A program made the position numbers and the translations under genes. Below the pieces are notes generated by a model. That model was not told where the DNA came from and did no database searches. It saw only the letters and a program-made list of their open reading frames with translations. Below are positions 1 to 59,815 of a DNA stretch of 64,000 nucleotides, piece by piece (the first letter of the stretch is position 1; every line of letters starts with the position of its first letter). The stretch is from the NCBI GenBank assembly GCA_034509925.1, contig CM067535.1:2621001-2685000 (forward strand), in the 5' to 3' direction. Source of the DNA: Hirudinaria manillensis (taxonomy: Eukaryota > Annelida > Clitellata > Hirudinida > Hirudinidae).

Positions 1-198
1 TTAGCATTGGTCATTTATATAATAGTTAGATATTTAATTAATTGCTAAGATATTTATTATTTGGATTTATTATTTTGCAAGAAGATTAAAATAAACAAAA
101 CGCCCATTGCATTCTTGCAAAATGTAATTTGTAATCTCTTAAATAATAAATAATAAGAAATATATGTTTAGGTTCATTTTAACTTAAGTTATTGTCAG

Positions 199-3100
199 TC
201 GTAAAGTTAAATTGCACGGATGGTATTTATGGAAATCTAGTTCACATTACAAGAAACGGAGGCCCGAGAACGAATATTCTTGCGCTATGCGAAGTTAAAG
301 TTTATGGTGAAATTTATCTAGAAAAAAGTGAATACATTTTTTTCTGACTTAATTAAACGTATTTAATGATTTTTTTATCGCTAATTTACAGCTAATGTTG
401 CCATTAAAAAAATGACATCACAAAGTAGAACTGTGCACGGACACGTTTCGGAAAAGGCAGTTGATGGTGATGTTGAGACCTGCTCAATTGCTCTAAGTTC
501 CGCTGAAAATTCCACACTTGCCTGGTGGCAATTGGATTTGAACGGAACTTATGAAATCGAAGATATTGTCATTCATTACTTTCCCAAAAGAGGCTGTACG
601 GTTGCAATAGATTCTAGAATTTTTCATTACTCGTTACAAAAGACTATTCTGACTAGTTGGATGAATTTCAAGTAGAACGAATAGATATAATTATTTTAAA
701 ACATATTTTGGGTATTCTTAAGTTGATATTTCAATCATACCACCATCTTCACGCATTAAGTTGTTTTCTGAAAAGGTAGTTATTATATTATGTTCTAGTG
801 AGATTATCAATATCTGACTAACTGCAGACACTGATTTTTTGCACGGAATTATTATATATATTTCAAAGACGTCCCAGAATTATGAGAAAAGAATTTGTTC
901 TACAAATGATCGTCCGCTACACTGGTATACAGGTTACCTAAATCACTGTTTGGAATCGTCATTACTAAGACTTCTTTAATAACTTGTTGACAAATTTCGA
1001 TCTAGGGTCAAAATTGAAAATAATGTGCCGAAAGAATTCTTACGGTCGATTTGTGACCATTGTGAGAGTCGGTAGAAAAGCAATGCTAGGTCTTTGTGAG
1101 GTCTTCGTCCATGGAGCACTGAATCTAGACACCAGTAATTGTATAAACATGAATTGTAATTGTAAACATGAATGATTACTAATCATCCGTATTTACAGAC
1201 AGCCGTATTTAATATGCTTCTTGAGGTATTGCTAGGCACTTAGTTTTAGTGCTGTGTTGATACAAGATAACTGATTAACGACACAATTTCCATTTTTAGT
1301 CACTTTATCGTACAAAAGACCAACATTTCAAAGCGGCATTACACACTTCAACACATCCGCATTAGCTGTCGATGGAAAACTAGAAACGTGTGCTAGGATT
1401 TACGCCCCATTCCGTTCGATGGCCTGGTGGCGCGTGGCTCTCGACAACGTCTACAGAATTTCGAACGTCAGCATTTACTACAATCCAAAGTTATACAAAG
1501 GTAGATTTTAAAGACGAATCATATGAAATTTTTCATAAACTACAGCTTGTACTAGTCGTAATACATTATATTCATTATGTCCAAACAGATCCTCGATACA
1601 TGAACAAATTTAAAGTCTTTGTTTCAATTGATTTCGACAACGATGAGGAACAACTGTGCGCCACTGTCGATAAGGAACCCAAAAAAGGTGCATTCCAATG
1701 AACCTCACCTTAAGCTGTATTTGTGTTGAAACACATCTTTAATTCCTAAACTCCTTCATTTTCAGAGGCTTACGTTAATATAACTTGTACCAATTACGTC
1801 GTTGGACAGTTTGTTACCTTAAGGAAATATGCGGGCTCCAATTCACGAGCTTTTATCTTTTGTGAGGTATACATTTATCCTGAAGATATGCCTAAAGGTT
1901 AAAATCTTTTTCAGCTGACGAATTTATATCAATTGTTTTTTATTTGCGTTTCTCAACTGATTTGAAATACAAATTAATTTAAAATATGATAATTTTTATA
2001 AATATTTTATGTATATTTTTTTATAATGAAGTTGTTATAAATAATAATGAAAATTATTATAATTTTAAATTATTATATTATAAATAAATATTATAAAATA
2101 ATAACGCTAAAGATATTTGTTTGTATTTTTTTTCCAAATGAACTGTTTCTTAGTTTGTCCTGACGATAGCATGAAATGCGAATCGGAATCCATTTGCATT
2201 CCAAAAGAAAATGTTTGCAACCAAATCAGGAATTGTGCCGATGGAAGTGACGAAATTAATTGCGGTTCTCGTTAATTTCATTATTATTTACAATTACATC
2301 AATGCATTCAGCCATGACATTTCTTACAATAGCACATCATAAATCTTAAACCTATTACTTGAGAGTAATTAATTAGGCACATTTAAGCATTAATCATCTG
2401 AAACTTATGTAATTATTCTATTGATAACTTAAAACTGCAGTAGTATGACGGAAGTTTTAAATATTATTATTATTATATATTAGTATTAAAATATTTTAAA
2501 ATATTTTCGAAGCATGTCTTCCTTACCAACACAAATGCAAAGAAGGTTTCTGTGTGCATAACGATTGGCTTTGCGATGGAACCAAAGATTGTCCATTCGG
2601 AGACGACGAGACGCATTATAGTTGTCGTAAATACCGATAATATATACAATAATAATTGATAAAATAAAATTATTAAATTGAAAAGCCATAATTTCATTTT
2701 AAAGGTAGCTGCGGATCTCACGAGTTCAAGTGTTTCAAAAATAACATTTGCAAAGACTTATCGAAACGCTGCGATGGGAATTTCGACTGTCCTGATCATT
2801 CCGATGAAATTAAATGCAGTAAGAATTATCAATACAAACATATTAAGCTAACAAATTATATATTTATTTATATATCAACAAGGAATACCTAAAAATAAAT
2901 TAAATACATGGCAACTCATTTGGATTTTGGAAACACATTTCAATTATAAATCGGCGAATTATTTGGAAATTTGTGCATCCATTAAAATTTCTTGACAGTC
3001 GAATTGAACGGTAAAACCGATTATGAAGTGAAACTCTTCAATGCAACCTTTGAGGGAGAAACAAACTTTTCGATTTGCTCAACAGATTGGACCGATGAAC

Positions 3101-4775
3101 ATAGTATCCGAGTTTGCAGTGACGTGGGTGGCGAGTGAGCAGAAAATTTATTTCATTTTAATCTTTTAAGACGTCTTTTCGTTAATAGCTGCTAATTTTA
3201 GATATATTCATAACACTTATGACCCTCTCGACACAAAGAAAATACTCAGTTTAAAAAAAAAAGTGGCTTTTGGAAATTCATCTTTCATGTCAATCTTCAA
3301 GAAAAGGTTATCATAGCTACTAATGATTAAAATTAAATATATTCACGATTTCAAGCTAGCTCCAGCACAAATTCATTTTGCAGTGAGCACTGCGAATCCA
3401 AGAAATTTGTTAGAATTACATGTTCCTCCCACTCAGGTTCGTCATCATCGTCATCTTCGTAGTCATCTTCATCATCCATCCTCTCTCTCCTCCATACATG
3501 TTTCAGTCCATTCTCTCATCGTAAGTAAGTGCACCTCCATCGTGTCATATCACGTCATGCGACTTCAAAATATTATTATTTAAGCTTCACAAAATTTGTT
3601 TAATGTCTACAATTTAGTTTTACTTATAATACTGGCATTTTATTTATATATCTTAACTTTTATTGTATTTTTTTATTGTATTTTTTATTGTATATTTTAT
3701 CGTACTTATTTTTTAGATAGATTTGACATACCAGCTTGCGGCATACGTAGAATAGATGAAAATCGCACTGGTCCCTACGTGGTCAACGGAGACGAAGCAC
3801 AATTAGGTGCATGGCCGTGGTATGTACAAATAATAGTAAATGGAAGGGTTAAATGCGGTGGAAGCCTCATATCTTACTTCTGGATAATCACTGCAGCCCA
3901 TTGTTTAATGTAAGATTTTGCATTATATACTGCTATACAGTTAAGCTATAATTATAGAATTACAATCTATCTTTTTTTAAAATGTTTTTTTTTTCAGCAA
4001 TATAAGAAATTTGACTTCATTAGTAATTAAACTTGGCACTGTTTCGTGGAACGATGAAAATGCGAGAAACCATCTGGCTTCTTATTATTCAATTCATCCA
4101 AATTACAATCAAGATACGCTTACCAACGATATTGGAATGATTAGACTTCGAGATCCAATTCTTCATAACGAATCCATAGGACCAATATGCATTGGAAATC
4201 TTGGCAAGGAAAGGAATATGACTCATAGATATTGCGTATTCGCTGGATTTGGAAGAACTGACGGGGGTGAATTTGTTTATTTAAATTTTATTTTAGAAAA
4301 ATTAATGAAATTATAAAAAAAAACGACAACAAAAATTTACATAATTCTATAGATTTGCAAAGCTCTTTTCAACCAAACCGCATGCAACAGGGTCGAATGA
4401 ATATAATGACGTCTGACGAATGTCTACGAAATTTGAAAAATGTGGAGTTTGGTAGTCTGAAAGACAAAATTAATTATTCTGATGTTCTGTGTGCTGGTTC
4501 GTTGCCTACGGCATTCGGAATCAATACATGCAAGGTACAAATTATAGATTTTCGGTGTTGATCTATTCAGAAATTGAACCACTTAATGTTTGCAGGGAGA
4601 TGGGGGAGGTCCTCTGGTGTGCAAGGATGAATATGGGGTTTGGTCACAGATTGGAATCGCCAGCGTTCCTTACTCATATAAATACCGTCGTATCAGATCT
4701 TGCACTATCAGCTTATTTGTAAAAGTGTCAAAACACTTGGACTACATCGCTAGTACTGAAAAGCAATCATTCTAG
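199..4775 (+). CDS. Unit 1: FTP-LDLa-SRCR mosaic serine protease homolog, catalytic Ser lost (5' partial)
   Basis: Seventeen exons read as one open frame of 817 codons: 199-327, 392-595, 828-932, 1006-1134, 1300-1500, 1589-1687, 1766-1897, 2154-2264, 2513-2626, 2705-2818, 2999-3134, 3202-3306, 3384-3436, 3717-3909, 3998-4266, 4353-4534, 4596-4775. Visible residues 1-43 are the end of an FTP domain (LCEV motif), 44-189 and 190-333 are two full FTP domains (AVDG, AWW, LCEV), 333-446 are three LDLa repeats (CDG/SDE), 446-544 an SRCR-like domain, and 545-817 an S1 protease. His (TAAHC) and Asp (NDIGM) of the triad are present, but the last exon reads GDGGGP instead of GDSGGP, so Ser195 is Gly and hydrolysis is not expected. 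The four usual protease disulfides and the Cys pair tethering the light chain remain. A secreted pseudoprotease is inferred. The signal exon and the first FTP exons lie before the window. Confidence 0.87.
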
Positions 4776-7700
4776 TTACTTTGCCCGAACAAAGTTATTA
4801 AAAACACCGATGTATTTGTTGACCTAACCCAGAAAATATTTCCGAAGTGCAGCATTGCCTTTAAGATCAATCTCAGGATGGTTTGCAGATAAAATGCTCG
4901 TGTCGTTTCTGAAATATTATTAATTTTCACTACACGGTATTTGGTTAATTTAACATACGTCCAGTTATCAAAATTAGGTGCAACGATAACCACTTGTTAA
5001 TCTCTTAAATGAAATAATAATTATCTTCATGAGGACATGCCATTAATAATTTCATTGCGAATATAAACAAAAGGACTGTCCTCAATGCTCGCAATAAATG
5101 AATTAAATAATAAATGACCCAATCACTTTCTGTTAATAAATCATTTTAAATCCTAATTTCAAACCGATAAGAATGTAAAGTTTGTCATTAATCACCCAAC
5201 CGACCATTCGCTTTTACAGGGTAAACATTAAAACAAAAATTATCTTCAATAATGATAATATATTAGATATAAAACTGATATTTACTGCGATATCGGAGAT
5301 CGAAAATGGACTTACAGATAAGTCTGAAGTTTGGGTTGACATTATGCTTTAATTGCTTCACTTCAAAAATGAATCATTTAATAAAATAATTACAATTTAA
5401 AATACTAATGAGCCTAACATGTTTCAAAGCGATATGATATTACACATACTTACTCTTGTCATGTCATCGAGTCTCATATATTGCCATCCATCTTCAGGTA
5501 AGATGCAAGTAAATCCTAGGCTGTCGAATATACTTGCAATTAATGAAGTTTTAGCAGAATTTCACTTAAATGTAAACATAAATTAAGGATGCTTTAATTT
5601 AATGGATATTATTTCAACTTACACCCCGTATCTTGACTTAGGGAATCATTTTAAATTTCAGTCAACTTGGCTTTCAAGAGACCAACAGTTCAAAGCAACA
5701 CATACAAGAATCAAAAGAGTGATTTGGCAGTGGATGGAAACAATAGAGACATGGTCAGTAGCTGGAGACCCTGACAATATTGTTTTACCCGATCAGTTTA
5801 GCTCCAACACGGCATGGTGGAGCGTGAAATTGAATAGCATTTATTACATTAAAAGTATCTCTTTGGACCAAGATTACAAATCGCCATGTTAGTTGTTAAG
5901 ATATTGAAAGTCTTCTTTTCCTATCTTTTAGTGGTCGATACCTGGTATAATTGTTATAATTGTAACAATTGGCTAAATACAAGCAAATAAAAATTGATCA
6001 AACATAATTAATTCCCACTTATTCACGTAAAGTTTTACACTTGTAAAAGACTTAATAAATATAAATGACTCAACTGCAAATATAGTTTGATCTGTATTAT
6101 CAATGATTTTTAAATAGATTAAATATGTTTTTAATGTAACGATTAATAAATATGTTAGTTAGATAAATTGTACATCTTAAGGTTACATCAGTAGATGCTT
6201 AGAAATGCAGTAGATGAGGACTTGAATGATCTTATTTTTAGTCGCAAAATATCTTAACACCATCATAATCTACGTTTCCATCAATTCTCGGGAATATTTG
6301 ACATGCACAACAGCTGAACGCCTCTCTAACTGTTTGGTATTTTTTTGTTTGTAAACATCTGGTCATTATTAGTCAACATTACAGCGAAATAATAAATCAT
6401 AATTTATTTTCTTCGGAAAATGAAATTGAATATTTAAGGTTTTAATAACCAATTTAAGGCTTGAATTTAACTTGCAATGAAGAACTTTATGGCAACACCA
6501 TACACAATGCGAAACATGGCGGAAATAGATTGGACATAATTACACTTTGTGAAGTTATTATCTTTGGAGAACTTTACACAGTTGAACGTAAACAACATAT
6601 TTTGTGTAGCTTGAATGTATTACATATTGTAATCTTCATAATGAATGCCTAGCTTGGAATGTAAATAATGCAAGAGTTCCGTCTAGATTTCGTTTATCAA
6701 TTTTCAGAAATTCAGCCGGTTGAAAAAAGGTTATGGTCATTTGGGTAGGGTTAGGAGTGCCCTGGTCTAGCGTATATAGTGTTCTGCGGGTTAAGTTTGC
6801 CAGATTTTGATATAAGTCGTCACGCGCTTTGGTATAAATCATAAAAGTACGAACAAATCTAAATTATAAACTAAAACCATTCAAGTTTTTGAGTTAAATT
6901 TTTCAAGGCAGAATTCTGATTTTTTTCTTATGTTTTGAATTCAAATCTGTTACTAAATGCAGATAAAAAAAAATATATATACAATGTATTTGTCAATATT
7001 GTTCACTTCCCCATTCATTTGTTCAACGATGATATTAAATGACGATTTTGTTTTTTGGTTTTTACTTGTAATTAATCAAATTAGTCGTTAACAATCTCTG
7101 ATGATTTCAGAAGATGTGGCATTAAAAAAATCGGCTTCACAAAGTGGCACGTATTCAATGCAAGGTGCCCATTTGGCAGTTGATGGAAAGGCTGAAACGT
7201 GTTCAATTGCCAAAGCTAATCAATCAACATTGACGTGGTGGCAGGTTTACCTGAATGGAATTTTTAATATTAAGGAGGTCGCGATTAGCTAGTATCCTAA
7301 AAGAACATGTATGTTATCATCCTCGTTGTGTACTACGCCTGGAAGCTATGCTATAAAAACTAGTAGCTTAATCTGATTATGATAGCCTAAATTATAATAA
7401 AATTATTATAATAATAAAATAATTCATAACTTAAGCATTGGTTTTATTAAAAATGATTTTTAAGACATTTTTCTGCAGCTATTGGAATTCTACACGGTTT
7501 TATTATTTTCGTTTCAATCAATGCCGAGTACTTTGAGCAACAGATTTGTAGTAAATTCGACGAAGCTAAGCATTATTACAATAGTGAGTTAAAAATTGAT
7601 TTTATCTCGACGTCACAAAATTGAGACGAAAGTAAAGACGAAATGAATTTTAAATTATTTTGATATTTCAAAGAATACAAATAATTACAGATTTTCAATA

Positions 7701-8497
7701 ATTAAACGAGAAAAGAATAAGAAATCAAATATCATTCGCAGGTGCGGCCTCTTAAATTTGCATTTCCATTCAGAATCACTGTTCCAAACAAGTTGTAAGA
7801 AACCTGTTTACGGTCAATTTGTTACGATAGTTAGAAGCCAGCCCTTCCAAAGTGTATTGCTGGGTCTCTGTGAAGTTCGTGCTGATCTCAACACAGTCAT
7901 TTGGATCTAAACTTTATGGCATTATTTCAAATTGTAATTATTTTTTAGAGGGTAACATCATTTTAACCTGCGACCATACAGTGGCCGGTCGATTTATAAC
8001 ATTTGAAAATCATGATGGTCCAGATCAAACTAAGATGTATTTTTGTGAAGTACTGATTTATGCTAAAGAAGTCGATAAAAGTTATTTTAATTCTTTAATA
8101 AAACTAAAATATAATTCAATTCTTCAAGTATAATTCGATTATAGTCCATTTATTTGAAATTAATTAGAATCATTTTTTAATAATTTCAACTTAATAATTT
8201 GAAAAAATCTTAAAAAGAGTGCAGATAAATTATTATATATGTATTTTTAGATTGTACGAATGCCTCGATAAAGTTGCGACTCAATTTGCGTCGCTAAAGA
8301 AAAAATTTGTGACCGAATTAAGCACTGTCAAGACGGAAGCGTTGAGAAACATTGCAGTTAGATTTTTTTTTTAATTAACAAAATTTATATTTAAATAATA
8401 AACAATTATAATAAACAGTTATAATAAAATATTGCATTTCAAATATTAAATACAAAAAGCCTGACCTCCATATCAATACAAGTGCGACCAAGGACTC

Positions 8498-8667
8498 TGT
8501 TATAACTTCAGAATATCGAGATCAACACGGTTTATTAGGATCAACGCAATACGACACAACTCGACACAGTACGACACGATACGAACACGAGCGGAATTAA
8601 AACGGAAAACAAGCGTGCCTCGTCGCACGAGGTGCACAAAACCAAAGATACGCATAATCCCACAACA
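8498..8667 (-). repeat. 3' LTR of the gypsy remnant
   Basis: The repeat has TG...CA type ends (TGTTG at 8667 and AACA at 8498 on the minus strand) and lies directly beside a polypurine tract at 8668-8680. No second copy exists in the window, so no target-site duplication can be tested. Confidence 0.7.
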
Positions 8668-9394
8668 CCTCCCCCCCCTAAACGATTAGGTATTTCTTCC
8701 TCTGGGGATCCATCTCCAGCCTTCTCGGAGGTCGGCGGTTCCTTGCGGATCTTTTCTTTGGTGTCCGAGGTTGCACTGGTGGAATGACATGCTCCACTTC
8801 GCACTCTGGAATTTCCTGTAGTTCCGGCGTGTGTATGTTTTCTGCGGTTGTCTGGGATGTCCCACTTAGTGGCAGGAATGGCAAGTCAAATGCCACACAC
8901 ATCACCTTCAGTGAATCATCCTGCGCACGCTTCCTGAGCTGGTTCGCGTGGCGATGGAGCATTTTGCCGCTTGCCTCCACTAGGTAGACTTGACGTCCCT
9001 GTCTGCGCCTGATCCATCCCTGTATCCACTTCGGGTGACTCGGGTCCTTGTAGTCTCTTACGAAGACTGCGTCTCCCTCGACGAACTCTCTCAGTCGCCT
9101 GTGGATAGGTTTCCTTTCTTCCATCTCCTGATCCGCTCTTGGGAGATGTTTTACTGGACTTTTGAGTTGGAGGTCACTCAGGGGAGTTCTCAACGGTCTC
9201 CCTAGGAGTTTCTCTGCCGGCGTCTTCAAATCCGTCAAAGACGTGCATGGCGTTGTCCGGTAAGTCAGCAGGAATTTCTGGAGCGCATCCTCCATCACCT
9301 CCTCCCCCTGCAGCTTTTGTAGTGTACGCTTGAATGTGTCCACAAAACTCTCAGCTTGTCCATTGCAGTGAGGTTGGTAGGGCGGTAGGTTACC
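8498..9394 (-). mobile_element. 3' remnant of a Ty3/gypsy LTR retrotransposon
   Basis: On the minus strand the ORF ending at 8678 encodes the end of a gypsy integrase core (a PPYQPHCNGQAE-like motif near 9385-9350) and its C-terminal domain and tail. A purine tract (about eight G then AGG) sits next to a 170-bp terminal repeat at 8498-8667 that begins TGTTG and ends AACA on the minus strand. The 5' part of the element (5' LTR, gag, protease, RT, RNase H, most of integrase) is absent: unit 2 gene sequence resumes abruptly at about 9395. The insertion therefore came with, or was followed by, a deletion that removed both the element's left half and several host exons. Confidence 0.85.
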
Positions 9395-10434
9395 TTTAAA
9401 CTAAATGCATTTTCAACATCAATTCAACAGGGACCTACTAAATGCTTCCGAAATAAATGTAAAATTGGGCACCATATTAGAAAACGACCCAATGGTCGAG
9501 AGTTATGAGGTCGAAAGCTTTTCAATTCACCCAAACCATTCCAATGAACGTAACGATATTGCCTTGGTAAAACTTAGAAAAACAATTTTTTTTCAATAAT
9601 GTCACTAGGCCAATTTGCCTGCCAGATATGAACGCAGACAAAGTGAGATTAAATTCGCACCGCTATTGTGTAATGTCTGGTCTTGGATATCAGGATTCAG
9701 GTTTTTTTACCATTAATAATTTTAATGGACATGTCACAAATAAACTTAATTTATTTTATTTTTCAGATTTTACTAATCCCCTTTCTAAGGTGCCTCGACG
9801 TTTACAACATGGGCGAACGAATTTGATATCAGATAAGGATTGTTTGGCTAACTTGAATATGAGAAAATAATGGAAAAATTATTTACGACAGGATCTGCAA
9901 GAAAAAAATAACAAATTTTGTGCTGGTTCATTACCTACAAACTATGGAATAAATGCTTGCAGGGTTAACCATTTTGAAATTGTTGAATAGATATTTAATT
10001 TCTTGTACCGGTCATAAATTTCGGTATGTTTTCGCTTGCACAAAGAACGTCTCAGAATAGCGTAATTATCTATTATAACAAATATTTGCGTCAGTAAAAC
10101 AGAAGCTAAATAGAAAATGTATCCAAAATGCCCTAAATATATTAATGCACCAACGTGTAATTTCTGTCGAATATAAACATTCCTAATTTATTTTGGAATC
10201 AAAAATGATACATTTTAAAATATAATTAATTAATCTTTTAATTCTAAATAATTAATTAATATGCAGGGTGATGGTGGAAGCCCTCTCGTCTGCAGGAATG
10301 AACACGGAATTTGTACTCAAGTAGGAATTGCAATACAATTTAAAAGTCACGTTTTTCTTGATCTCAAACAATGTCTTAGCACCATTATGCTTCGAGTCGA
10401 AAGTTATTTGAATTTTATTAATCAAATTAATTAG

Positions 10435-21358: not shown

Positions 21359-21395
<37 letters not shown>

Positions 21396-23978: not shown

Positions 23979-24071
<93 letters not shown>

Positions 24072-33705: not shown

Positions 33706-33949
33706 TTTACAGTTACATTTGTCTTACTGGTTATTTATAATGATTTACAAAATAAACACTTCAAGGCCTCATCGTTTTTGAGAAACTAAGCATTGGAAAT
33801 GTAGCGATTTATATTCCGGATCTGTTGGCTTGGATTTATAAAAACATTGCGTTGATTTAAATCCTTTTGCATTAATCTTACAACGAAATCATACATTATT
33901 GCAATATGCTTTGTTATTTTCAAATAGGGACATACATAATGTATCTACA

Positions 33950-36499: not shown

Positions 36500-36570
36500 G
36501 TTAACCCTAATTGTTAAATATTCATATTGTTAACCCTAACCTAACCCTAACCCTAACTATAACCCTAAAC
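36500..36570. repeat. Short interstitial telomere-like tract (CCCTAA type)
   Basis: Isolated and tandem TTAACCCTAA, CTAACCCTAACCCTAACTA and ACCCTAAAC units occur here, i.e. TTAGGG on the other strand, next to a duplicated GTTAAATATTCATATT phrase. About five near-perfect hexamers are present, too few to call a telomere. Confidence 0.65.
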
Positions 36571-42338: not shown

Positions 42339-44548
<2,210 letters not shown>

Positions 44549-45221
44549 AAAGGATGTCATTGAGAATGTTACTGAAAATATAATTCATAATTTTGTATAA
44601 TTAAAATAAATTGCTTAAAGAAAACTTGTGCTTGTTATCTCTCAAATCAAAATGAAAGTGTAAATTTTAAGTTTTAAATTATATAGAAAAGATAAATACA
44701 TTTGCCGATTATCTTTGAAGTAAGGCAGCTTTTTGTTAAACATTTAATAATTAATTTAATATATTTGATGATTTATTTCGTTAATAAAATATGAAATAAA
44801 ATATGTTACTTATAAATATCTCTTATTTTTAGATTTTATTTACATTTAAATGTACTAGCTATATAAAGCTTTATTAAAATTGAACGCTATTGAAAATTAG
44901 TTATGCCCAATTTAGAAAAACAAAATCTGTTAAAGTGTGACCTAATTCATTCAATTATTATTTTGAAGCGATGACTATCTTATCAATTTATAACGAATTA
45001 CGTACAATTAGAAACAAAGATAAATAAACTATTGTTTATTTACATCTCATAAATCATAATTTATTTGCTCATTGAGATCCAGTATAGTCTAGAATTTATA
45101 TTTAAGAATTTGTTGAGTCTAGTTTACCAGAATCAGTTTAAAGCCAATCAAATCATTATTAACGATATAGTCATTTTTTTAAATCATATAATCTAAAGCA
45201 ATCTTCTGTAAATAATACAAA
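44549..45221. other. Spacer between units 8 and 9
   Basis: AT-rich; contains the unit 8 polyadenylation signal at 44605-44610. No exon or element recognised. Confidence 0.55.
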
Positions 45222-48200: not shown

Positions 48201-50193
48201 GCAATGTAAAATTTACTTTATTTCACTTTATTGTCTGTCATAAAAGAAAAGTTAATTATTGGATTAATTACAAATCTGAAAGGTTCATGTCCAAAGAATA
48301 AGTTTAAATGTCTTAAATTTTCACACTGCGTTCCGAAGTCGCAGGTTTGTGACGGTCTCATTCATTGCAATGACTCATCGGACGAGCTTCGTTGCTGTAA
48401 TAAATTTGGTTTTTGTTTTTTTTTTAATAATTACTTTATTTATTTTTCATTATTTTTATTATTTCTTATCTTTAAATAATCCATTGTAGTCATTTAAAGG
48501 AATCCGGTAAGCACAATTAGGTGTTTGTCTTTTGCTTAGTGAAATTTGAGAACGAGTCTCTTACTTCGAGTTTGGTCAAAGCCACCTTTCATGGAGAAGA
48601 TGATTTTTATATATGCAGTACTCACTGGAATAACTTGATAAGTTTTAGAGTATGCAAGTACTTGGGGAGAAGGTATGTAGTAACATTAAGTAGGTCACAT
48701 TAATAAGAATCTATTTAAATATTTTATTGACAGTCTTGCAGTCACTTCGAATTACGTATGGCTTCAAACGTCTAAAATACTCAAATTTATACCAAACCAA
48801 ACTGTCAAGGATGTGGCCACACCGATTATGTTTTCATTCCAAAAAAGGTATTTGAATCTGTCTCGGAGTTCATTTAAAGGATCAATATTAAATGCTTTTA
48901 ACTAACAGCAATTACTGTGAATCTGGACATTTCATTACTCTCGAGTGTTCACAGTTTCCAGGTTAGCCGAATATAGGTTCATTCTCTTACATTCCGTAAC
49001 ATGCATGTATGGCTATAGCAATGTGAAAGAAATGCGAGCCCTTACTTTCAATGCTGCCAAAGTGGAATACCATTAACAAAATAAAGAATAAGTTAAAAAG
49101 ACTTATTCGAAAGGCAGGAGTAATGAAAAAGTTTAAATGCTAATACTTTTTTTAAATAATGTATTCACGTTTATGATTCAGACTGCGGTGTAAGCGGTAC
49201 CGATGAAACTTACCTGCCCTACATAATCAACGGAGACGTGGCCAAGCCAGATGCATGGCCTTGGCATGTTCAATTGGTTGAAAATGGATTTACTTCATGT
49301 GGAGGAAGTATTATCAGCAATAACTGGATTCTTACAGCAGCCCATTGTGTCGAGTAATGAAAATTAAGTGCACCAATTTTATTTATATGATTGCATTTGC
49401 TGATGCATTTTCTAACAGAAAAATAAAAAATATATCACGAATATTAATTACGGTCGGAACGAAAAGAATGAGAAATAATCCAATGGCTATCAGTTACCCT
49501 GTGGCCCGCCTTGTTATACACCCGGAATTTTCCAATGTAAGCCGTGACGATGACATTGCCATGATCCAAACTAGGACTCGCATAGCATCTACCCCCATCT
49601 GCTTGCCTAGCGAATATTACGATGAGAAACAATTAATGTCTTATCGTTACTGCATTATAACTGGCTTTGGGCGTATTAGCCGAGGTCAGTATTTTTGTTT
49701 TACGAGATCAGTATTCCATCATAATTTATGCAATCTTTTGAAATATAATTTTTTTTTCTGCAGACGGTACATTTTCAGATCAATTAAGACAAGGCCGGTT
49801 AAATATAATGTCAAAAGAACAATGCCTGAGGAATCTACTAAATGTTACTACTTTAAGAAACGCGAGCATAAACGTTGTCCTAAAGTCAAAAAAAAAACTT
49901 TGCTCTGGCTCCGTGCCAACGACTTACGGTGTGAACTTATGTAAAGTAAGATTTTTTATTTGAAGTTTAACATTATTTAGTAATATAAAGATTTGGTCTC
50001 TTAATTTTAGGGTGATAGTGGTGGCCCTTTTGCTTGCAAAGATGAACATGGAATTTGGACACAAATAGGAATTGTGGAAAGTTTTTACAAAAGCAAATTG
50101 AATATTAGTTGCACCAATAATAACATTGTGAGGGTCGATTTTTATCTGGAGTTCATAAGAAATATCATCCATACTTATCAGGATATCACATAA
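45222..50193 (+). CDS. Unit 9: secreted FTP2-LDLa3-SRCR-serine protease, full length
   Basis: Seventeen exons close to 793 codons plus stop: 45222-45282, 45509-45709, 45875-45991, 46407-46541, 46948-47145, 47251-47352, 47473-47604, 47681-47785, 48092-48205, 48283-48396, 48540-48672, 48734-48847, 48909-48961, 49182-49353, 49419-49684, 49764-49945, 50011-50193. Residues 1-20 signal peptide; 21-171 and 172-315 FTP; 316-426 three LDLa (the first has RDE instead of SDE); 427-526 SRCR-like; 527-793 S1 protease with complete triad (TAAHC, DDDIAM, GDSGGP). Activation site Y|IING, residue 189 Asn (GVNLCK). FTP1 has WN in place of the usual WW, so its core may be altered. The C-terminus extends a few residues beyond relatives. 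A 5-bp microsatellite expands the FTP1 intron 45992-46406. Confidence 0.89.
46069..46280. repeat. (TTATA)n pentanucleotide microsatellite, about 40 copies
   Basis: Near-perfect run inside the FTP1 intron of unit 9. The tyrosine/isoleucine-rich frame through it is an artefact. Confidence 0.96.
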
Positions 50194-50984: not shown

Positions 50985-53900
50985 ATGGACTTCTTACTAA
51001 TGTTCACAATTATATTCCCAGGCGCACTTTGTAATAAGTGCTGTCACGGTTTGAAATATAACTTTTTTCCAGGCACGGTTATATTTGCTGTATTTTATAA
51101 TTTTTTCTGCAATTTAAACAAAATCACGTTCATTTTCCAATTATAGTAGTTCTGCCTTTAAAGAAAGCTGTCGTGCAAAGCCGCACTGTTAATAATCAGA
51201 GTGCCTATCTAGCTATTGACGGAGATGTTTATACCTGCTCTTTTACTGGGGATCTAAAAATGAGATTCTCGTGGTGGAGAGTTGAACTTGATGGAATATT
51301 TGAAATAACAAATATCGTTTTGTATTTTATTCCAGGAACACCGTGTAGGTTTAGTTTTTCAACAAATACTTTGAACGTGTTCTTAGAGAAGAGTTGACAA
51401 TTAATTAAGACATTAAGAAAATAAAGATTCTTTCTAAAGAATGATTTTGTTTCACTCAAGGCAGATAGTCGGTTTGTGAATAATCTCAAGATTTACATCT
51501 CTCTGGATAACGAAGATTACGAGCAGAACTTGTGCACTTCTTATGGAAGAACCGATTCAATTCTTCATGGTAAAAACTGTTAAAAAATCTATTATAATTT
51601 ACATTTATTTCTTAAGAATAAACGTGACCTTGTTGAGAAAATATTTTTTTATCCGCTACATAAATTATAGTTTAACGTAAATATTTAACTTTGATAAATA
51701 TTTAATAGACGGATCACACAGAATTAACGATAATAAATGATTGCCTCTCCTCAGCAATTGAAATGATTGAAATTATTTAATAATTTACTATTAAAAATTA
51801 CGTCATTAAAAACATCCAATTGAAAGTTGACCCATTTTCTATTAAGAGTCCCCTCTAACTTTGTATTGCCAAACACCTATCTTCGGTAAGTTTTTGACTA
51901 TAAGAAGAGATGGAGCCTATTGGGCAGGTCACCTCAGTCTTTGTGAGGTGAACATTTATGGTGGAGGTCAGACAGGTATATTGCATCTACTCGCTAATAA
52001 AGTTAATCTTTTGTTATTTTATCATATTTTTGGTTTTTGGTTTCCTTTAAGAGCCATTTTTCAGTTTTGCTTTTATATTTATATGAAATATGTATTGTGG
52101 TTGCATGGTTAACAAATTAATGAATTCAGAATTTAGTGATATAATGAATGAAAAAAAAACAGAAATTAAAAAGAAAAAAAGTAAAGAGATTTTAAATAAT
52201 TCCGATTTTATAGATAGAAAATATATATTTCCAAGGCGCAATCACCTAACATTTGAAATCGCATAAGTTGCTGTTACAGCTTATTAAATATAAACATAGA
52301 TTGCTATTTTTTTTTTTTAAATTTAGCACTAAATGTATAATTATCATTAAATGCTTACATAAGCCAGCTTGTCTCTCCATAAACCGACGACCCAAAATGG
52401 CATCTTGTTCCTAGAAAGTTCTCATTTGGCTGTGGATGGAGATGTCAAAACTTGTACGAGGGTCCAAGCAAACAAAAATCAAATTGCTTGGTGGCGGGTG
52501 ACTTTAGAAGACATTTATTATATTTCAAATGTGACAATTTTTTACGACCCAAATTTAAGTGGTTTGTATAATTGTATAACTTCCCTTTTTAAACATTATA
52601 AAATGTATTATGTATTATGTAATCATTAAGATTTAAGTATTAAAATTGAGCGATAATTTTTTTTTAACTTTTTTTATAGCTTCTTTAACGCTGAATAATT
52701 TCGAAATTTATGTATCAACCAATGCCGAGGATTTACATCAACAACTATGCGCCGTGTTTTATGATTTCAAAAACAATTTCCATAGTGAGAAATTCCAGCC
52801 ATTCTATTAGCAAATGAATATTTTTAATTTCAATTAAATTCAATTGATTTCCATTAGATGGATCGCTGTCACTTTCGTGCGGCAACGTACAATCTGGACG
52901 TTTTGTAACCATACAGAAATTTGGAGGTAATAAACGAGATAAACTGTTTTTCTGCGAGGTGTTGGTCTGGGGAAGCGAATACAAGTTTTCAAACGGTGTT
53001 TAAATTGAATTAATTATTTCTTTCGCAACTATTGTTCGCTATTTTCGCTCCGTTTATTTATTAAATAATCACTATTTGAAAATAACGAATGTCAGAAAAG
53101 ATATTTAAAGATGTTATCTAATTATATTTTATTTAAGTTTGCCTAAGTGAAGAATTAGTTTGTTTGGAGGATGGTGTTTGCATTCCAAAGTCTAAAATTT
53201 GCGACGGCGTCAGGGATTGTTCAAGTAATATCGACGAAGCAAACTGCGGTAATTGGCATAACTTGTTAATTAAATGTTTTTTTTGGGGCGTCAGGAATAA
53301 CTTAATATTAAAATATAGTTTCGTAACGATTATGATAAATGCTGAAATAACCAAAGTTTTGCTTTGCTTGAACTAGAATCATACCAAAACGATTTTTAAT
53401 ATAGTAAAGAAAAAAGTATAATAACATATAATCAGTAATATAATAAAATTCGTAATCAAAGCTTGCTCAGAGTTCCAATATCGGTGCAGTGAAGCACAAT
53501 GTATTCATAAAGATTGGTTGTGCGACGGTACTGCAGATTGTCCAAAAGGAGATGATGAAGAAGTTAATTCATGTGGTACGTTTGTTTTTTTAATTATTGT
53601 TTATTTATTTTGAAAAATTTATAAAATTATTACAAAATACTCTGATTTTGTTTTAATGTATATTCAATGTGTCCAAAAGTAACGTGCGATTCGACCAAAT
53701 TTAAATGCCACAAGAACAATGTATGCATTGGTCTCGCACTAAGATGCAATGGCATCATTGACTGCTCGGACTCCTCAGATGAAATTGGATGTCGTGAGCA
53801 AATAATATTCTTTTTAAATTTATTGTATTTTATTGACCACAAATAATACTAAAACAGTTGAACTCCAAAACTCGTTCGTCCGTCAAAATATCCCAAGATT

Positions 53901-56900
53901 CTTGATAGCCACTTTCAGAGGACAGAAGAATTTTTATGTCTGCGCAGACAACTGGAAGCCTCTGGATAATCTTTATGCTTGCTTGGAATTGGGTAAAACG
54001 TAAACAAATTTGCATATTTCAGCAATTACAAAATTATTTTTAATGTATTGTAATAACCCGGGGTCCTCAAACTAATTATAGAAGGTCAGGTTTATTGAAA
54101 GTTGTTAGATGGCTTGGAAGATGCACGATGCTTCAAATGTCTAAGTCTTGAAATCTGCTGTTCTCTAATTCTCGCTCTCTTTCCGAGATAAATCCATTTG
54201 TCAAGGTACATAACCAAAGAGTCTGAATAGCAACAATTAATTAATTCTCAAATTATATTGCCACTAAATTTAATTAATTATTAAATTAATTAATCGGCAA
54301 TATAATTTTAATTATTATTCAATTTATTGGATCTAGGGATCCAACACTGCCCCTCCTTAAATCTGTTCGTCCCGAACAGACATCTATTCCCATTTTCATT
54401 TTTACCCTAGGAATAGGATCCGATCTTCCAACAATCTCATGGCTGCAAATCCCAGATCCATTTGCTTTGCCATCTTCTGGGATTTCTGTTTCCTCCCTTT
54501 TGCTTCTGTGTCCCGCAAGTTTCAGTCGCGTAACATCGCCATTTCTATGCTCAACCTCCTGCTCCACCATGCCGCCAGATCTCAGACTCTCTACAGGATC
54601 ACCTGCTCCATTTTCCTTGCTAGGCACTCCCCCGAAATCCCGAGCACTCCCTTCTGTTATTTCCAATGGAGCCAAAACATCAGCTGGTAAATCCATGGGC
54701 TGTTCTGTAGACTCTACTTGTTCCACTATCAAGTCCGTGCGCTCCACCGGCAACTCCACGTGACTCATCAGTAACTCCTCGGGCTGCACCAACAACTCCA
54801 TATGATCCACCGGCAATCCCACAGGCTCCTCCGAAAGTTCCACTTGCTCCACTAAAACCTCCGTGAGCTCTCTGGGCCCTGCTGACGACTCGACCTGATC
54901 TGATAACTCTATGGGCGCCAACGTCGAGTTCTCTAAGTCTGCCATCACGCACAGAGTTTCTGGAGACACGCACGCACTGTGGTTGGATGTGCCTTCTAAT
55001 GACTCCATCCCAATGCTGCCAGAAACGGTACTTGGAACATCAGAACTCTTCTCAGTAGAGTTTCCACCAGAAACCAAAGAGGCATCCTGACGCGGAATCG
55101 CTGTGTTTTCCAAATCGCCCCTAATAGTCCTCCTAGAGTTCTCTACAAACTTTCTCCGCCACTTACTATATTCGGACTCGAATTCAAAAGAACCAACAGG
55201 ACTCTTCTCGGTAGAGTTTTCACCCGAAACCAGCGAGACATCCTGACATGGAATCGCTGTGTTTTTCAAATCGCCCCTAATACTCCTCCTCAACTCATCT
55301 ACGGACTTTTTCATAAAATCAAGAAATTCTTCCATTTTTTTATGGGATGGATTCTCGAATTCGTATTCCTCTGGGTCATGGCCATTCTCTGTCAGCCATG
55401 TCCCAAGTCGCTCTCGTATCTCAGCTTTCGTGCCTTTCCAATCCAGGCCACGATCTCTCAATTCTTGTCTCAATCGAGGCACGTACAATTCATCCAAGTA
55501 CTTCGGCATCCTTCACTTTTCAATTAAACAAGCTTCTACCTTAGTTGCTTTTGGACACCCTTTAACTCTAAATCCCACTCCCGACACCAATGTAATAACC
55601 CGGGGTCCTCAAACTAATTATAGAAGGTCAGGTTTATTGAAAGTTGTCAGATGGCTTGGAAGATGCACGATGCTTCAAATGTCTAAGTCTTGAAATCTGC
55701 TGTTCTCTAATTCTCGCTCTCTTTCCGAGATAAATCCATTTGTCAAGGTACATAACCAAAGAGTCTGAATAGCAACAATTAATTAATTCTCAAATTATAT
55801 TGCCACTAAATTTAATTAATTATTAAATTAATTAATCGGCAATATAATTTTAATTATTATTCAATTTATTGGATCTAGGGATCCAACAGTATTATAAATC
55901 TCAATCAAACAGATATTAAAACTTAAGTCTTTCCAACAGCATCCATAAAGAGACGTCTCTAGCATCACTTTCAACTTCAAAATTTCTGGGAAAAAAATAT
56001 AATGCAAATTACCAGAATGGAAATTTTTATATGAAAATGTTTGATGAAAGGTAATAATTTGGTAAAATAATTAATTTAATAAACAAGAATCGATCGCATT
56101 GACCAATTAAGTAATGTTGCAGCTCATACTGTATTACTCAAAAATTCGTCCAAATTACTTGCGCTGAGATATCAGATTCTGGTTAGTTCGCGCATCATTA
56201 AACATTACGATGTATGTCATATCTACATAAATAATAGATATTTATGAATATTATGAGCGATAAATGGGAATGTTGCAAGTTAACCGAGCACAAATTCATT
56301 TGATTTTCAATTTAAATGCTATTCTTAACATCCTTAACTGAAAGAAAGTTGTTCAGTTATTTATTAAAATCAATTATTAAAATTTTCCAACCGCTAAATT
56401 CTTTAATTACTAATTTCATAATCATATTCGAACATCATTCGATTATCAAATTTAGATTGTGGTGCTCGTGCATTTCCTGACAATGTCCTCGGACCCTACA
56501 TAATCAACGGAGAAAGAGCCAAAGTGGGAGCCTGGCCATGGCACGTTCAAATATTTAACCTCGTTAGTCCAACCATTTGTGGTGGAAGTTTGATAAGAAA
56601 TAATTGGGTGCTGACCGCAGCTCATTGTTTAGAGTAAGTAAGTGTTGAAGCACAAATTTTTGTGAACTCTCAAGGGTTTCTTATAATTCTTTTCTTATAT
56701 ATTCTTTATAAATGATGAAATTATTAGTCAGAAATGAAAACAATTTACCTGCAAGTTTCATTTGAACGCTTTCATTTGCAGAGACATAACCTCTGTTTCT
56801 CAATTAAAATTCAAATATGGGAGTATAATAAGCGATGACCGCTCAACTCATATAAATTCTGCAGTACGATTCATAGTTCATCCCAACTATAAAAAGTCCG

Positions 56901-57600
56901 GTTTTCCATACGACATAGCACTCATACAACTAAAATATGTAATTGCATTTGACAAAGTCAAAAGACCAATATGTCTGCCGAAAGAAAGTCTGACGGACGT
57001 TGAGTTACGCTCTTTCAAATACTGCGTTTTCAGTGGATTTGGAAACATTAACAGATGTAAATTAATTCCATTTATAACTTTTAAATCAAATAAATGTTCA
57101 CGTTCTCTTAGAATAGCTGTCACATTTGGTAATTTATTTTTGAAAACTTTTAATTTATATTTTTAAATCACGACACTTCTTTTAGCAAAATGGAAAACAA
57201 ATTATCTCCTGCAAGGACGAATGAATTTAATGACTAATGAGGAATGCATTTCAAACTTGAAAGTTGTTGGGAGAGATCCCGAGAAAGTATATCGAGATTT
57301 ATTTGCAGACAACAGTACCATTTGTATAGGTTCTCATCCAGCAAACACTGGAACAACACCCTGCTCGGTTGTTTCAATTATTTAAAACAACTTTTATCAA
57401 ATTACTTAATTAATTTGTAAACGTTTTAGCAAGACAGCGGTGATCCGCTAGTCTGCAAAGACCAACATGGGATATGGACACAGGTCGGAATTATAACCTC
57501 CACCTTAAAGGATATTAACGGAAAGATTTGCGGAAACGCAGTAATAACCCGAGTGGATCATTACCTGAGCTTTATTGACCTCAGCATAGATGACGCTTAA
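50985..57600 (+). CDS. Unit 10: secreted FTP2-LDLa3-SRCR-serine protease with altered oxyanion loop
   Basis: Seventeen exons close to 791 codons plus stop: 50985-51030, 51147-51344, 51465-51569, 51847-51975, 52364-52561, 52680-52784, 52858-52995, 53138-53248, 53462-53575, 53680-53793, 53858-53999, 55940-56050, 56123-56181, 56456-56633, 56782-57056, 57186-57367, 57430-57600. Residues 1-15 signal peptide (short); 16-159 and 160-306 FTP; 307-419 three LDLa (the first ends NIDE instead of SDE); 420-523 SRCR-like; 524-791 S1 protease. His (TAAHC), Asp (YDIAL) and Ser are present, but the catalytic loop reads QDSGDP: Gly193 of the oxyanion hole is Gln and Gly197 is Asp, so activity is doubtful. Activation site Y|IING, residue 189 Thr (GTTPCS). 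A gag-only LTR element lies antisense in the SRCR intron 54000-55939. Confidence 0.89.
54049..54346 (-). repeat. 3' LTR of the SAP-ORF element
   Basis: 298 bp copy, preceded on the minus strand by a purine-rich tract. The ORF stop codon (54319) lies inside this LTR. Confidence 0.92.
54319..55509 (-). CDS. SAP-domain gag-like protein of the LTR element
   Basis: 396 codons. Residues about 1-40 fit a SAP motif (YVPRLRQELRDRGL, GTKAEIRERL), a short helix-turn-helix known to bind DNA. Two direct repeats of about 50 residues follow, each with RGDL-NTAIP and SLVSG-NSTEKS. Residues about 195-290 are an acidic, Glu/Leu/Pro-rich stretch with a roughly 11-residue repeat (VEL-PVE type). The C-terminus is Gly/Arg/Lys-rich. 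No zinc knuckle is seen, so calling it gag is based on its place in the element, not on homology. Confidence 0.8.
   Translation of the reverse strand: MPKYLDELYVPRLRQELRDRGLDWKGTKAEIRERLGTWLTENGHDPEEYEFENPSHKKMEEFLDFMKKSVDELRRSIRGDLKNTAIPCQDVSLVSGENSTEKSPVGSFEFESEYSKWRRKFVENSRRTIRGDLENTAIPRQDASLVSGGNSTEKSSDVPSTVSGSIGMESLEGTSNHSACVSPETLCVMADLENSTLAPIELSDQVESSAGPRELTEVLVEQVELSEEPVGLPVDHMELLVQPEELLMSHVELPVERTDLIVEQVESTEQPMDLPADVLAPLEITEGSARDFGGVPSKENGAGDPVESLRSGGMVEQEVEHRNGDVTRLKLAGHRSKREETEIPEDGKANGSGICSHEIVGRSDPIPRVKMKMGIDVCSGRTDLRRGSVGSLDPIN
55591..55888 (-). repeat. 5' LTR of the SAP-ORF element
   Basis: 298 bp with TG...CA type ends; assigned as 5' because the candidate primer-binding site and the ORF start lie just inside it on the minus strand. 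Confidence 0.92.
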
Positions 57601-57835
57601 ATCATAACAACATATTTTTATATATTAGAGTTTGAGAAATATAACTTATTTAATGATAAATAAGGTTTGCTTAACATTAACAACCAAATAATAACAATTT
57701 GTTGCCCAAGATTAATCTACTTAAAATAAGTCCAAGGGGACAGGCCATTTTGAATGATAAATGACCATATATAGAGATAAGAGAACGATTATCTGCGTAT
57801 AGAGAAGTTGACATTTCACCACACGAGTGATTTTG

Positions 57836-59815
57836 AGATTAGAGTCATTTTTGATACTTCTTGGGAATATTTATGCTCGTGGAGCTAAGATGACGCTATG
57901 AAACAAAACATTGACTGAAATTAAAAACTAAAGTTTATAGTGTAATATATATATCATAATTATTTATATAGTAATGTGATGTTTAAAGATATAATGAGTA
58001 ATATAATGTGTTAATGCATCTTAATTTCAAGTAACTTTGCCTATGACGAAGGCCACCATGTTCATTTAGCAATCGACGGAGTCATTAATACCTGTTCATA
58101 TGCACTAGATAATAAAAATAAGTGGTCTTGGTGGAGATTTGAGCTGGATGAAATCTTTGACATAGCATCATTAATTTTATAAATGTAACATTTTGTAAAT
58201 CGGTGAATTAGCATATTTATTTTGTTAACGTTCAATAGTAAATAGTTGTTTTGAATGATAATTAGCTTTTGACTTAAATTAGATAGCCAACTCATAAATA
58301 ATCTGAAAGTTTATTTTTCCTTGGATAACGAAGATTACGAGCAAAATTTGTGATGTTCATACCAGAGGCCCAATTCAATACTAAGCGATATGTGTACGGT
58401 TTTTCAATTTCTTGCATAATTTTCGAGAGTCATGAAACGTAAACGAAAAGTAAAGTTTAAACACGCAGAGTCAAATGTTCATTTCATTCAAGATTTATTG
58501 ATTTATTTTCTTAGAGTCTCCTTTGAATTTGTTCTGCAAAACGCCCATCGCTGGTACGTTTGTGACGATAGAAAGAGATGGAGTTATGTGGCCTGGTTAT
58601 TTGTTTATCTGTGAAGTGAATATTTGCGGTGGTGGAGAATCAGGTTGTCAAGCATAAAATTGTTTTTAATTTATAAATTATATACTATAATGTTCTAAAA
58701 TCACATTCTAGATTAAATTTACAAAAAAATTTTTAAATTAGAAATTGTATTTGGATATGGCCTAATTTCTTCATTTATTCTTTTATTAAAAATTTTATTA
58801 GATGACCACTTCGGAGATTGTAAATATTTGATTTGTTAGAGAGCGATTTTGTATATAGTTCGTTAGTTTTTGTTGAAAGTTTTCTGATTTTGTTCAGGCG
58901 AAGGGTTCGCCCGTGCCTTTATCTTTTAATAAGATTAAAAAATTGTATGAGTGATAATGTTAATTAGGTTCATGTCATGTTAAAAGTACCGCGATTAAAT
59001 TCATAAATACAAAGAATTAAAATAAAAAAATTATTAATTCTATAAATATTAGTAACTAGTACCTTTATTAGATAATTATAACTTGTTAACTCTGTAAATA
59101 TTAAAAACTTCATATAATCTATCAATCATAAGGCAGTTTGTCCCTTGCGAAGCCGACGTCTCAAAATGGCCTCTTCCAAGAAAGGTCACATTTAGATGTG
59201 GATGGAAACATTAGCACTTGTGCCAAAGTTATCGCAGGAAGCAGCCAAATTGCCTGGTGGCGAGTAGCATTCGATGACATTTATTACATTTCAAATGTAA
59301 CAATTTATTACGATCCTCGTGATGTCAGTGTGTTTACAAAAATAAATAAATATATATATCTTTTAAAGGCTATGTCTCATGATTTTTTAAGTAAATTTGT
59401 ATTTTAAATAACTTTAATCTTTTAGTTGGATTTTGAACGATGCAAAGGAATTCTATAATAATTACAATTAGGCACAATCGATCGCAGCACGTTCAAAATA
59501 TATTTGTAACACATTTTCCATTTGTTCAGATTCCTATTGACTGAATAACTTCGAGATTAATGTTTCAACTAATGCCGAGGATGTTTATCAATAACTTTGC
59601 GCTAAATTTTACAACTTAACAGACACGTTTAAATGTGAGAACTCTGCAGAAAATGGGATCCATTTTGATCTCTTTGTTTTCAAGAACGAACAGGGAATAT
59701 GGACCCAAATAGGTATTATGAGTGGCAGTTTCTATGGAAAACGCAACAATCCTTGTCAAAACAGTATTCTTTCAAGAATGGATAAATTCTTATTTTTTAT
59801 TGATTCCTTTATATT
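57836..59815 (+). pseudogene. Unit 11: decayed, deleted copy related to unit 10
   Basis: A signal-like stretch (57836-57893, FLILLGNIYARGA) has no Met. FTP1 exon 1 remains at about 58030-58190 (LAIDG, SWWRFELD) with a TAA at its end; exon 2 at about 58290-58385 (NNLKVYFSLDNEDYEQNL) has TGA at the Cys position; exon 3 (58515-58643) is intact. FTP2 exon 1 (59133-59327) is intact; exon 2 (about 59530-59635) carries TGA and TAA stops. It then runs directly into a piece of the last protease exon (about 59665-59815, [15 protein letters not shown]) without GDSGGP. All LDLa, SRCR and other protease exons are gone. Similarity to unit 10 is highest in the FTP1 second exon. Confidence 0.85.

What the first reader, a model, noticed from the sequence alone, without database searches (positions are those of the whole stretch)
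1..59815. Tandem array of a mosaic lectin-protease family: FTP(1-3)-LDLa3-SRCR-S1
At least eleven head-to-tail copies of one architecture fill 60 kb. Seven give long models whose hand-built exons stay in frame through 14 to 17 exons, which strongly supports real genes. Each domain type is well known, and LDLa-SRCR-S1 alone resembles type II transmembrane proteases, but here fucolectin-type domains replace the membrane anchor and the protein is secreted. I do not know a described family with this order. A glycan-targeted extracellular protease set for immunity, venom/salivary or reproductive use is inference.
Basis: partly seen in the sequence, partly recalled or inferred. Interest (0 to 1): 0.88.

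Follow-up and report, generated by a model that had tools for sequence, protein, structure and literature searches.

The report
Leech fucolectin-like protease gene megacluster
The window is one stretch of a very large leech gene cluster whose proteins join fucolectin-like, LDL-receptor and scavenger-receptor modules to a trypsin-like domain that often looks altered or inactive; I did not find this combination described.

Summary
Eleven same-strand copies or fragments of FTP/discoidin(1-3)-LDLa3-SRCR-S1 fill window 1-59,840. Pfam finds all four module types, SRCR just under its cut-off. Two copies (E, 14 exons; H, 17 exons) give clean open models; several others are disrupted. The organism is a leech: COX1 is 97% identical to Poecilobdella javanica and 96% to Hirudinaria manillensis, and the assembly resembles the published H. 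manillensis genome. The window is a small part of the family: one genome search gave 64 S1 clusters in 739 kb of this chromosome, mostly in two opposed arms, and 5 on C4. Far-arm units are FTP4-LDLa2-SRCR-S1. Two intronless relatives lack FTP. The proposed function is only partly supported. The fucose-binding His is absent in 59 of 59 FTP exons placed. All 25 multi-exon copies compared have Tyr, not Arg/Lys, at the zymogen cleavage site. Residue 189 is Asp in 0 of 22. A triad residue or Asp194 is lost in 12 of 25. In the young arm most adaptor exons look constrained while the active-site exon changes fast. Best reading: a leech-lineage, probably secreted, mixed protease and pseudoprotease family on an enteropeptidase/TMPRSS2-type core. 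Its biological role is inferred.

The parts
1..4775 (+). Copy A: third FTP set, LDLa3, SRCR, S1; begins upstream of the window; Ser195 replaced by Gly (GDGGGP)
5419..10434 (+). Copy B: truncated; FTP exons and one LDLa kept, then a transposon fragment where LDLa2-3, SRCR and S1 exon 1 would lie; Ser195 to Gly
11411..20995 (+). Copy C: FTP2-LDLa3-SRCR-S1, triad intact; LTR-retrotransposon pol inside the first FTP intron
21709..28184 (+). Copy D: FTP2-LDLa3-SRCR-S1, 16-exon model from 21999, triad intact; unidentified apparent insert in an FTP intron
28917..33705 (+). Copy E: hydrophobic first exon, FTP1-LDLa3-SRCR-S1, 14 exons, 677 aa, clean open frame, triad intact
33906..34698 (+). Fragment E': S1 exons b-d only
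37090..41792 (+). Copy F: FTP2-LDLa3-SRCR-S1, 13 exons, triad intact; S1 exons b and c read as one open stretch
42513..44548 (+). Copy G: short; FTP N-half, SRCR end and S1, no LDLa found; S1 exon b is split between two frames
44903..50193 (+). Copy H: FTP2-LDLa3-SRCR-S1, 17 exons, 809 aa, clean open frame, triad intact; first exon uncertain
50985..57600 (+). Copy I: FTP2-LDLa3-SRCR-S1 with hydrophobic first exon; QDSGDP in place of GDSGGP; unidentified repeat-bounded insert (about 54.0-55.9 kb) in an SRCR intron
57979..59840 (+). Copy J: degenerate remnant, FTP exons and the last S1 exon without the GDSGGP motif
12688..14787 (-). LTR-retrotransposon pol piece (RNase H, integrase) inside an intron of copy C; not part of the gene family

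Best explanation
SHOWN: in a Hirudinaria-type leech a multidomain S1 gene family has at least 64 S1 clusters over 739 kb of one chromosome and 5 on another. Full units read carry 1-4 fucolectin/discoidin-type domains, 2-3 LDLa, one SRCR and an S1 domain. Nearly all FTP and LDLa exons are bounded by phase-1 introns, so modules can be gained or lost in frame. The LDLa-SRCR-S1 core is nearest in sequence to enteropeptidase and TMPRSS2; two intronless relatives lack FTP. INFERRED: the proteins are secreted zymogens and zymogen-like cofactors. Their N-terminal FTP/LDLa stalk docks on a surface or partner, not through the classical fucose site. The S1 domain is switched by a cut after the invariant Tyr15, made by a chymotrypsin-like enzyme or by a neighbouring molecule after clustering. 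Copies with an intact triad act as restricted-specificity proteases; copies without Ser195, His57 or Asp194 act as non-catalytic partners or decoys, much as clip-domain proteases and their homologues work together in insect haemolymph. The most likely setting is a humoral recognition and proteolytic network of the leech; salivary or crop use on vertebrate blood is the main rival.
For: Copy number and extent. Module identity. Same order on C4 and at distal C10. Core kinship: enteropeptidase over query 403-803, 2.7e-40, and TMPRSS2. Intron phases. Tyr15 in 24 of 24 S1 first exons and 25 of 25 copies, against Arg/Lys in 5 of 6 other S1 genes of this genome. Residue 189 Asn/Ser/Thr/His, never Asp, in 22 sites, against Asp in 4 of 4 other S1 genes where the site was read. 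Mixed catalytic states. Constraint: median dN/dS 0.39 over 37 non-independent pairs; pN/pS 0.11-0.33 in most adaptor exons against 0.88 in the Ser195/pocket exon. Precedents seen in passages: LDLa-bearing initiator proteases autoactivate and one has Leu at the activation site (PMC7215089); Tyr/Phe/Leu sites are read as chymotrypsin-type, 16 of 177 in a moth (PMC10036332).
Against: No transcript, protein or tissue evidence. Signal peptides are weak guesses and absent from H and F as modelled. Some break-down of copies could simply be decay. FTP-i a (pN/pS 0.65) does not fit a constrained adaptor. Vertebrate-blood modules of the same types are reported in medicinal-leech saliva (PMC7191736), which favours the rival. 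A role in immunity is argued only by analogy.
Confidence: 0.42

Rival explanations
1. Salivary or crop arsenal: the proteins are secreted during blood feeding, bind platelets, endothelium or blood lipoproteins through discoidin/LDLa modules, and cleave or sequester haemostatic or immune factors of the prey.
For: The leech is of a blood-feeding genus (PMC10671345). In Hirudo saliva F5/8-type and secreted four-LDLa proteins are reported and read as possible haemostasis modifiers (PMC7191736 sections 25, 26). A fast-changing active-site exon fits an arms race.
Against: The same paper names M12, M13 and M28 metalloproteases as the major salivary proteases (section 10). PMC10087013 and PMC10494388 main texts hold none of the terms trypsin, serine prote-, scavenger receptor, lectin or LDL/low-density lipoprotein searched.
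Confidence: 0.25
2. Binding scaffold family: the S1 domain is mainly a docking or decoy module, and the Tyr15 site is not cut in most copies; the selected function is recognition by FTP/LDLa/SRCR.
For: 12 of 25 copies lack a triad residue or Asp194; pocket residues are non-standard; the Ser195 exon is the least constrained in the close far-arm group (0.88).
Against: 19 of 25 keep His-Asp-Ser and 13 of 25 also Asp194; Tyr15 and an Ile/Val16 are kept in 25 of 25, which is unexpected if never cut.
Confidence: 0.2
3. Gamete recognition or another reproductive use, as for oyster F-type-lectin bindins.
For: F-type-lectin review links some members to fertilization (PMC5712786 passages); tandem arrays and fast change are common for such genes (recalled).
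Against: No evidence here; oyster bindins are not joined to proteases in the passages seen.
Confidence: 0.07
4. Artefact: FTP, LDLa/SRCR and S1 belong to separate genes, or the array is an assembly duplication.
For: Gene models come from my own finder with no RNA; first exons are weak.
Against: The same order with matching exon phases recurs in the full units read, on both strands and on a second chromosome. L033 and L034 join LDLa repeats and S1 in one open frame. Window copies D, E and I are only 38-44% identical to H, so they are not duplicated contigs.
Confidence: 0.04

Closest known systems
Type II transmembrane serine proteases with an LDLa-SRCR-S1 stem (enteropeptidase, corin, TMPRSS2)
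   Same: LDLa then SRCR then S1; sequence nearest to enteropeptidase and TMPRSS2 among solved chains with this stem; Cys before the activation site and Cys122 kept in 5 of 5 aligned models.
   Different: No membrane anchor detected; FTP domains N-terminal; Tyr, not Arg/Lys, at the activation site; no Asp189; many copies catalytically altered.
Insect corin-like and modular serine proteases (OfuSP29 Fz-LDLA-SR-PD; HP14/ModSP)
   Same: Secreted layout with repeated LDLa before S1; non-basic activation site in an initiator (PMC7215089, PMC10036332; passages).
   Different: No Frizzled, Sushi/CCP or Wonton domain; FTP instead; far larger copy number.
F-type lectins (fucolectins)
   Same: Domain kinship: nearest solved chains are fucolectin-related proteins 2j22 (0.0018) and 2j1r (0.014); repeated FTP domains; lineage-specific expansion.
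   Different: Fucose-binding motif lost; fused to a protease core. The review searched has no mention of 'protease'.
Salivary F5/8 type C and secreted LDLa proteins of Hirudo (PMC7191736)
   Same: Same module types in a related blood-feeding leech.
   Different: Described as separate proteins; the sections read mention no link to S1.
Clip-domain protease / protease-homologue sets of insects
   Same: Large mixed sets of proteases and inactive homologues (43 of 177 in one moth, PMC10036332).
   Different: No clip domain; unrelated adaptors.

Membership tests
Type II transmembrane serine protease | LDLa-SRCR-S1 order | tested here: met
   Pfam (H, E, I); SRCR_2 slightly under its cut-off
Type II transmembrane serine protease | N-terminal membrane anchor | tested here: not met
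   Hydropathy of 5 models, highest 19-residue mean 1.5; first exons uncertain
Type II transmembrane serine protease | Arg/Lys activation site | tested here: not met
   Tyr in 24 of 24 exons and 25 of 25 copies
Type II transmembrane serine protease | Trypsin-type pocket, Asp189 | tested here: not met
   0 of 22 pattern-matched sites
Active S1 protease | His57-Asp102-Ser195 plus Asp194 | tested here: inconclusive
   Met in 13 of 25 multi-exon copies compared; triad alone in 19 of 25
F-type lectin | F-type / discoidin-like domain | tested here: met
   Pfam F5_F8_type_C and F5_F8_type_C_2; 2j22 at 0.0018
F-type lectin | Fucose motif HX24RXDX4(R/K) | tested here: not met
   0 of 5 models; His absent in 59 of 59 placed exons, 3 of 62 not placed
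F-type lectin | Cation motif h2DGx | tested here: inconclusive
   35 of 62 exons by a strict pattern, 7 of 19 in the window
HP14/ModSP-type modular protease | Sushi/Wonton domain after LDLa | tested here: not met
   No Sushi family in Pfam results of models H, A, E, I, m2766
HP14/ModSP-type modular protease | Autoactivation on a recognition partner | not testable with these tools
   Needs protein work
Complement factor I | FIMAC-SRCR-LDLa2-S1 order (recalled) | tested here: not met
   LDLa precede SRCR and no FIMAC-type hit

The most novel reading that the evidence does not exclude
A leech-specific recognition-protease repertoire of at least 69 loci: conserved fucolectin-like/LDLa/SRCR adaptors carrying a fast-evolving S1 active site, gated by an unusual invariant Tyr zymogen switch, with proteases and pseudoproteases intermixed. 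It would be an annelid counterpart of the insect clip-protease/homologue networks, evolved independently from a corin/enteropeptidase-type core.
Probability: 0.28. Interest if true: 0.8.

Novelty: new variant of a known kind. Interest (0 to 1): 0.6.

Why it matters
If the genes are expressed as read, a medicinal leech devotes about three quarters of a megabase to one multidomain protease family that the passages of six leech papers I saw do not mention. It gives a testable case of how an adaptor-protease gene becomes a large mixed protease and pseudoprotease repertoire. It also offers new immune or blood-contact candidates in an animal studied mainly for its anticoagulants.

Tried and rejected
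The organism was first guessed as other small-genome invertebrates; settled as leech by COX1 and a weak hirudin Pfam match with a stop inside. 18S rRNA was never obtained. tRNAs: none by a bacterial-code scan. SRCR_2 searched genome-wide gave 5 matches, none in this array, because the domain is split over three exons here; no help for counting. Early gene models fused neighbours or read transposon frames as exons; region-wise models replaced most of them, but C still carries transposon-derived exons and F and I some read-through at exon ends. Homologue searches gave only LDLa-driven hits, so absence of the architecture elsewhere is limited to shared five-residue words and to proteins 0.55-1.75 times the query length. 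dN/dS of window copies is saturated and was not interpreted; one search used 23 of 32 grouped S1 loci (9 lacked an exon) and reports 37 pairs with dS 0.05-1.2, 36 of them within the far arm. One search left out one unplaced FTP exon and one group of 3. Residues 214-228 were judged by eye with recalled numbering: the five alignments printed stop near residue 214, but other rows of that table (plasma kallikrein, elastase) run to the end, so that call alone does not show a lost pocket. Structure prediction was not run: the spliced proteins are not given letter for letter by the DNA, as its rule asks. No other leech genome could be searched here.

Papers: PMC7191736 (passages, outline, sections 10, 25, 26), PMC10671345 (passages, section 11); PMC10087013, PMC10494388, PMC5712786, PMC7215089, PMC10036332, PMC5117596, PMC12651989, PMC6977106 (passages only); all others in search listings only.
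Full report
WHAT IS THERE. The window is C10:2,621,001-2,685,000 of a 148.4 Mb, 23-contig genome, 32% GC. A small gene finder of my own (codon bias, splice sites, homology between copies) gives spliced models. Pfam finds F5/8-type domains, three LDLa, SRCR_2 (just under its cut-off) and Trypsin in H and I; A showed no SRCR_2 and E no F5/8 hit at 0.1. There are 11 copies or fragments in the window. E and H are clean. C carries a retrotransposon piece inside an intron, and D and I carry unidentified inserts in introns. A and B have lost the catalytic serine. B, E', G and J are broken or partial.

WHOSE GENOME. Contig 23 is mitochondrial, and its COX1 reads through with the invertebrate code. The nearest proteins are Poecilobdella javanica 97% and Hirudinaria manillensis 96%; the next named leeches are Haemopis, Hirudo and Whitmania at 86-88%, with one further Whitmania laevis record at 81% (best 120 of 8000 scored are listed). 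PMC10671345 describes an H. manillensis assembly of 13 chromosomes (147.43 Mb), 9 small scaffolds and a mitochondrial genome, 23 sequences in all, 148.59 Mb in scaffolds (section 11). The match is close but the species call stays an inference. A hirudin Pfam match on C4 agrees, with a stop inside it.

HOW BIG IT IS. Flanking DNA shows + strand units upstream of the window and, after a gap from about 2.681 to 2.717 Mb, a second arm on the opposite strand, so the two arms face each other. Far-arm units read FTP4-LDLa2-SRCR-S1: the m2766 model has 4 F5_F8_type_C_2, 2 LDLa and a full Trypsin domain in Pfam, with SRCR incomplete in that model. A genome search with one far-arm S1 domain gave 176 matches, of which 150 are listed. 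Those fall into 71 clusters: 64 in C10:2.518-3.257 Mb, 5 on C4:10.62-10.66 Mb and 2 at C10:4.01 Mb. Two + strand clusters lie within the far arm at 3.05-3.06 Mb. Some clusters are single exons; some known copies (for example G) are not in the list; so 64 is a rough lower bound on S1 loci, not a gene count. An FTP query gave 70 exon matches, 63 in the same C10 region, 5 on C4 and 2 elsewhere. A C4 unit has at least two FTP, then LDLa3-SRCR-S1; a distal C10 unit is FTP2-LDLa2-SRCR-S1. The two genes at 4.01 Mb are single open frames of 517 and 507 residues with LDLa and S1 and no FTP; an SRCR-like stretch between them is my reading by eye, as Pfam on one of them found only Trypsin and LDLa.

HOW IT WAS BUILT. 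In models E, H, D and m2766 the FTP and LDLa exons run from phase 1 to phase 1, except the first FTP exon of H and D (start exon uncertain) and two exons of the first FTP in m2766. That permits in-frame module gain and loss and fits 1-4 FTP and 2-3 LDLa. A 27-row S1 tree, with 5 of 24 inner branches well supported, groups nine far-arm units together and separates the intronless pair; the deeper order is unresolved. I infer that FTP was added to an LDLa-SRCR-S1 core; the reverse, FTP loss in a retrocopy, is not excluded.

DOES THE PROTEASE WORK. In 25 multi-exon copies (23 of 32 grouped loci in the fetched stretch, plus one C4 and one distal copy) residue 15 is Tyr in 25. Six other S1 genes of this genome have Arg in four, Lys in one and Ser in one; one intronless relative has Tyr, the other Ala. 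Residue 189 is Asn 19, Ser 1, Thr 1, His 1 of 22 pattern-matched sites; four ordinary leech S1 genes have Asp. His-Asp-Ser is kept in 19 of 25, and with Asp194 in 13 of 25; of the 7 window copies in that table (A, C, D, E, F, H, I) 6 keep the triad. The far arm mostly reads GNSGN or GDSGN. The motifs SWG (214-216) and GVY (226-228) of ordinary S1 enzymes are not seen in these exons (by eye, numbering recalled). I read this as altered or restricted specificity in some copies and loss of catalysis in others.

DOES THE LECTIN PART BIND FUCOSE. The nearest solved chains are fucolectin-related proteins 2j22 and 2j1r. The published fucose motif (PMC5712786 passages) is absent from 5 of 5 models. The His is missing in 59 of 59 exons that could be placed, 3 of 62 not placed. 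Two exons, both outside the window, have an Arg-X-Asp string near the right place. The cation motif is kept in 35 of 62, 7 of 19 in the window. Other ligands remain possible.

SELECTION. S1 exons give a median dN/dS of 0.39 (0.28-0.87) over 37 pairs that share lineages, 36 within the far arm and one upstream pair; this argues against wholesale pseudogenes there. It says nothing direct about the window copies, whose synonymous sites are saturated. By exon in the close far-arm group, FTP exons give pN/pS 0.11-0.33 except FTP-i a at 0.65, LDLa 0.25-0.26, SRCR 0.22, S1a 0.43, S1b 0.33, and the exon with Ser195 and the pocket 0.88. Most adaptors are kept while the active-site exon drifts or diversifies. 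Groups hold 5-9 sequences and pairs are not independent, so this is suggestive only.

WHAT IS KNOWN. PDB searches point to enteropeptidase and TMPRSS2 for the LDLa-SRCR-S1 core, and to prostasin, TMPRSS2 and plasma kallikrein for the S1 domain alone. Insect corin-like and modular proteases give precedents for layout, for inactive homologues and for a non-basic activation site. Two protein-database searches found nothing with this order. Ten paper searches and passages of six leech papers showed no description of the cluster; main texts were not read in full and supplements were not available. An annelid transcriptome paper notes SRCR domains combined with trypsin or LDL-receptor domains among others (PMC5117596 passages), so the core is not new to annelids.

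VERDICT. Real, far larger than reported, and a new variant of a known kind. The mechanism is inferred; the role is undecided between humoral defence and feeding, with defence slightly preferred by analogy.

Noticed in passing
window 62586-63998, - strand: Open frame of 470 aa, cut by the window end, that reads like a rhodopsin-type 7-transmembrane receptor; Pfam 7tm_1 at 7e-4, below its cut-off.
   Followed up: partly
window 43719-44056 and 46058-46279: A perfect 84-copy TTAT array and a 44-copy ATTAT array, the first in an S1 intron of copy G and the second in an FTP intron of copy H.
   Followed up: no
L027, C9:3026446-3027786: A second COX1 with the same score as the mitochondrial contig, inside chromosome C9: a nuclear mitochondrial insert or an assembly join.
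   Followed up: no
G000 C11:1.70-2.66 Mb: A run of F5/8-type C exon matches on another chromosome, some stronger than those of this window; another discoidin-type gene cluster may lie there.
   Followed up: no
L033 and L034, C10:4.014-4.018 Mb: Two neighbouring single-exon LDLa-S1 genes related to the array core but without FTP; retrocopies or an old sister gene.
   Followed up: partly
window 36531-36568: Short interstitial TAACCC repeat, a vertebrate-type telomere unit.
   Followed up: no
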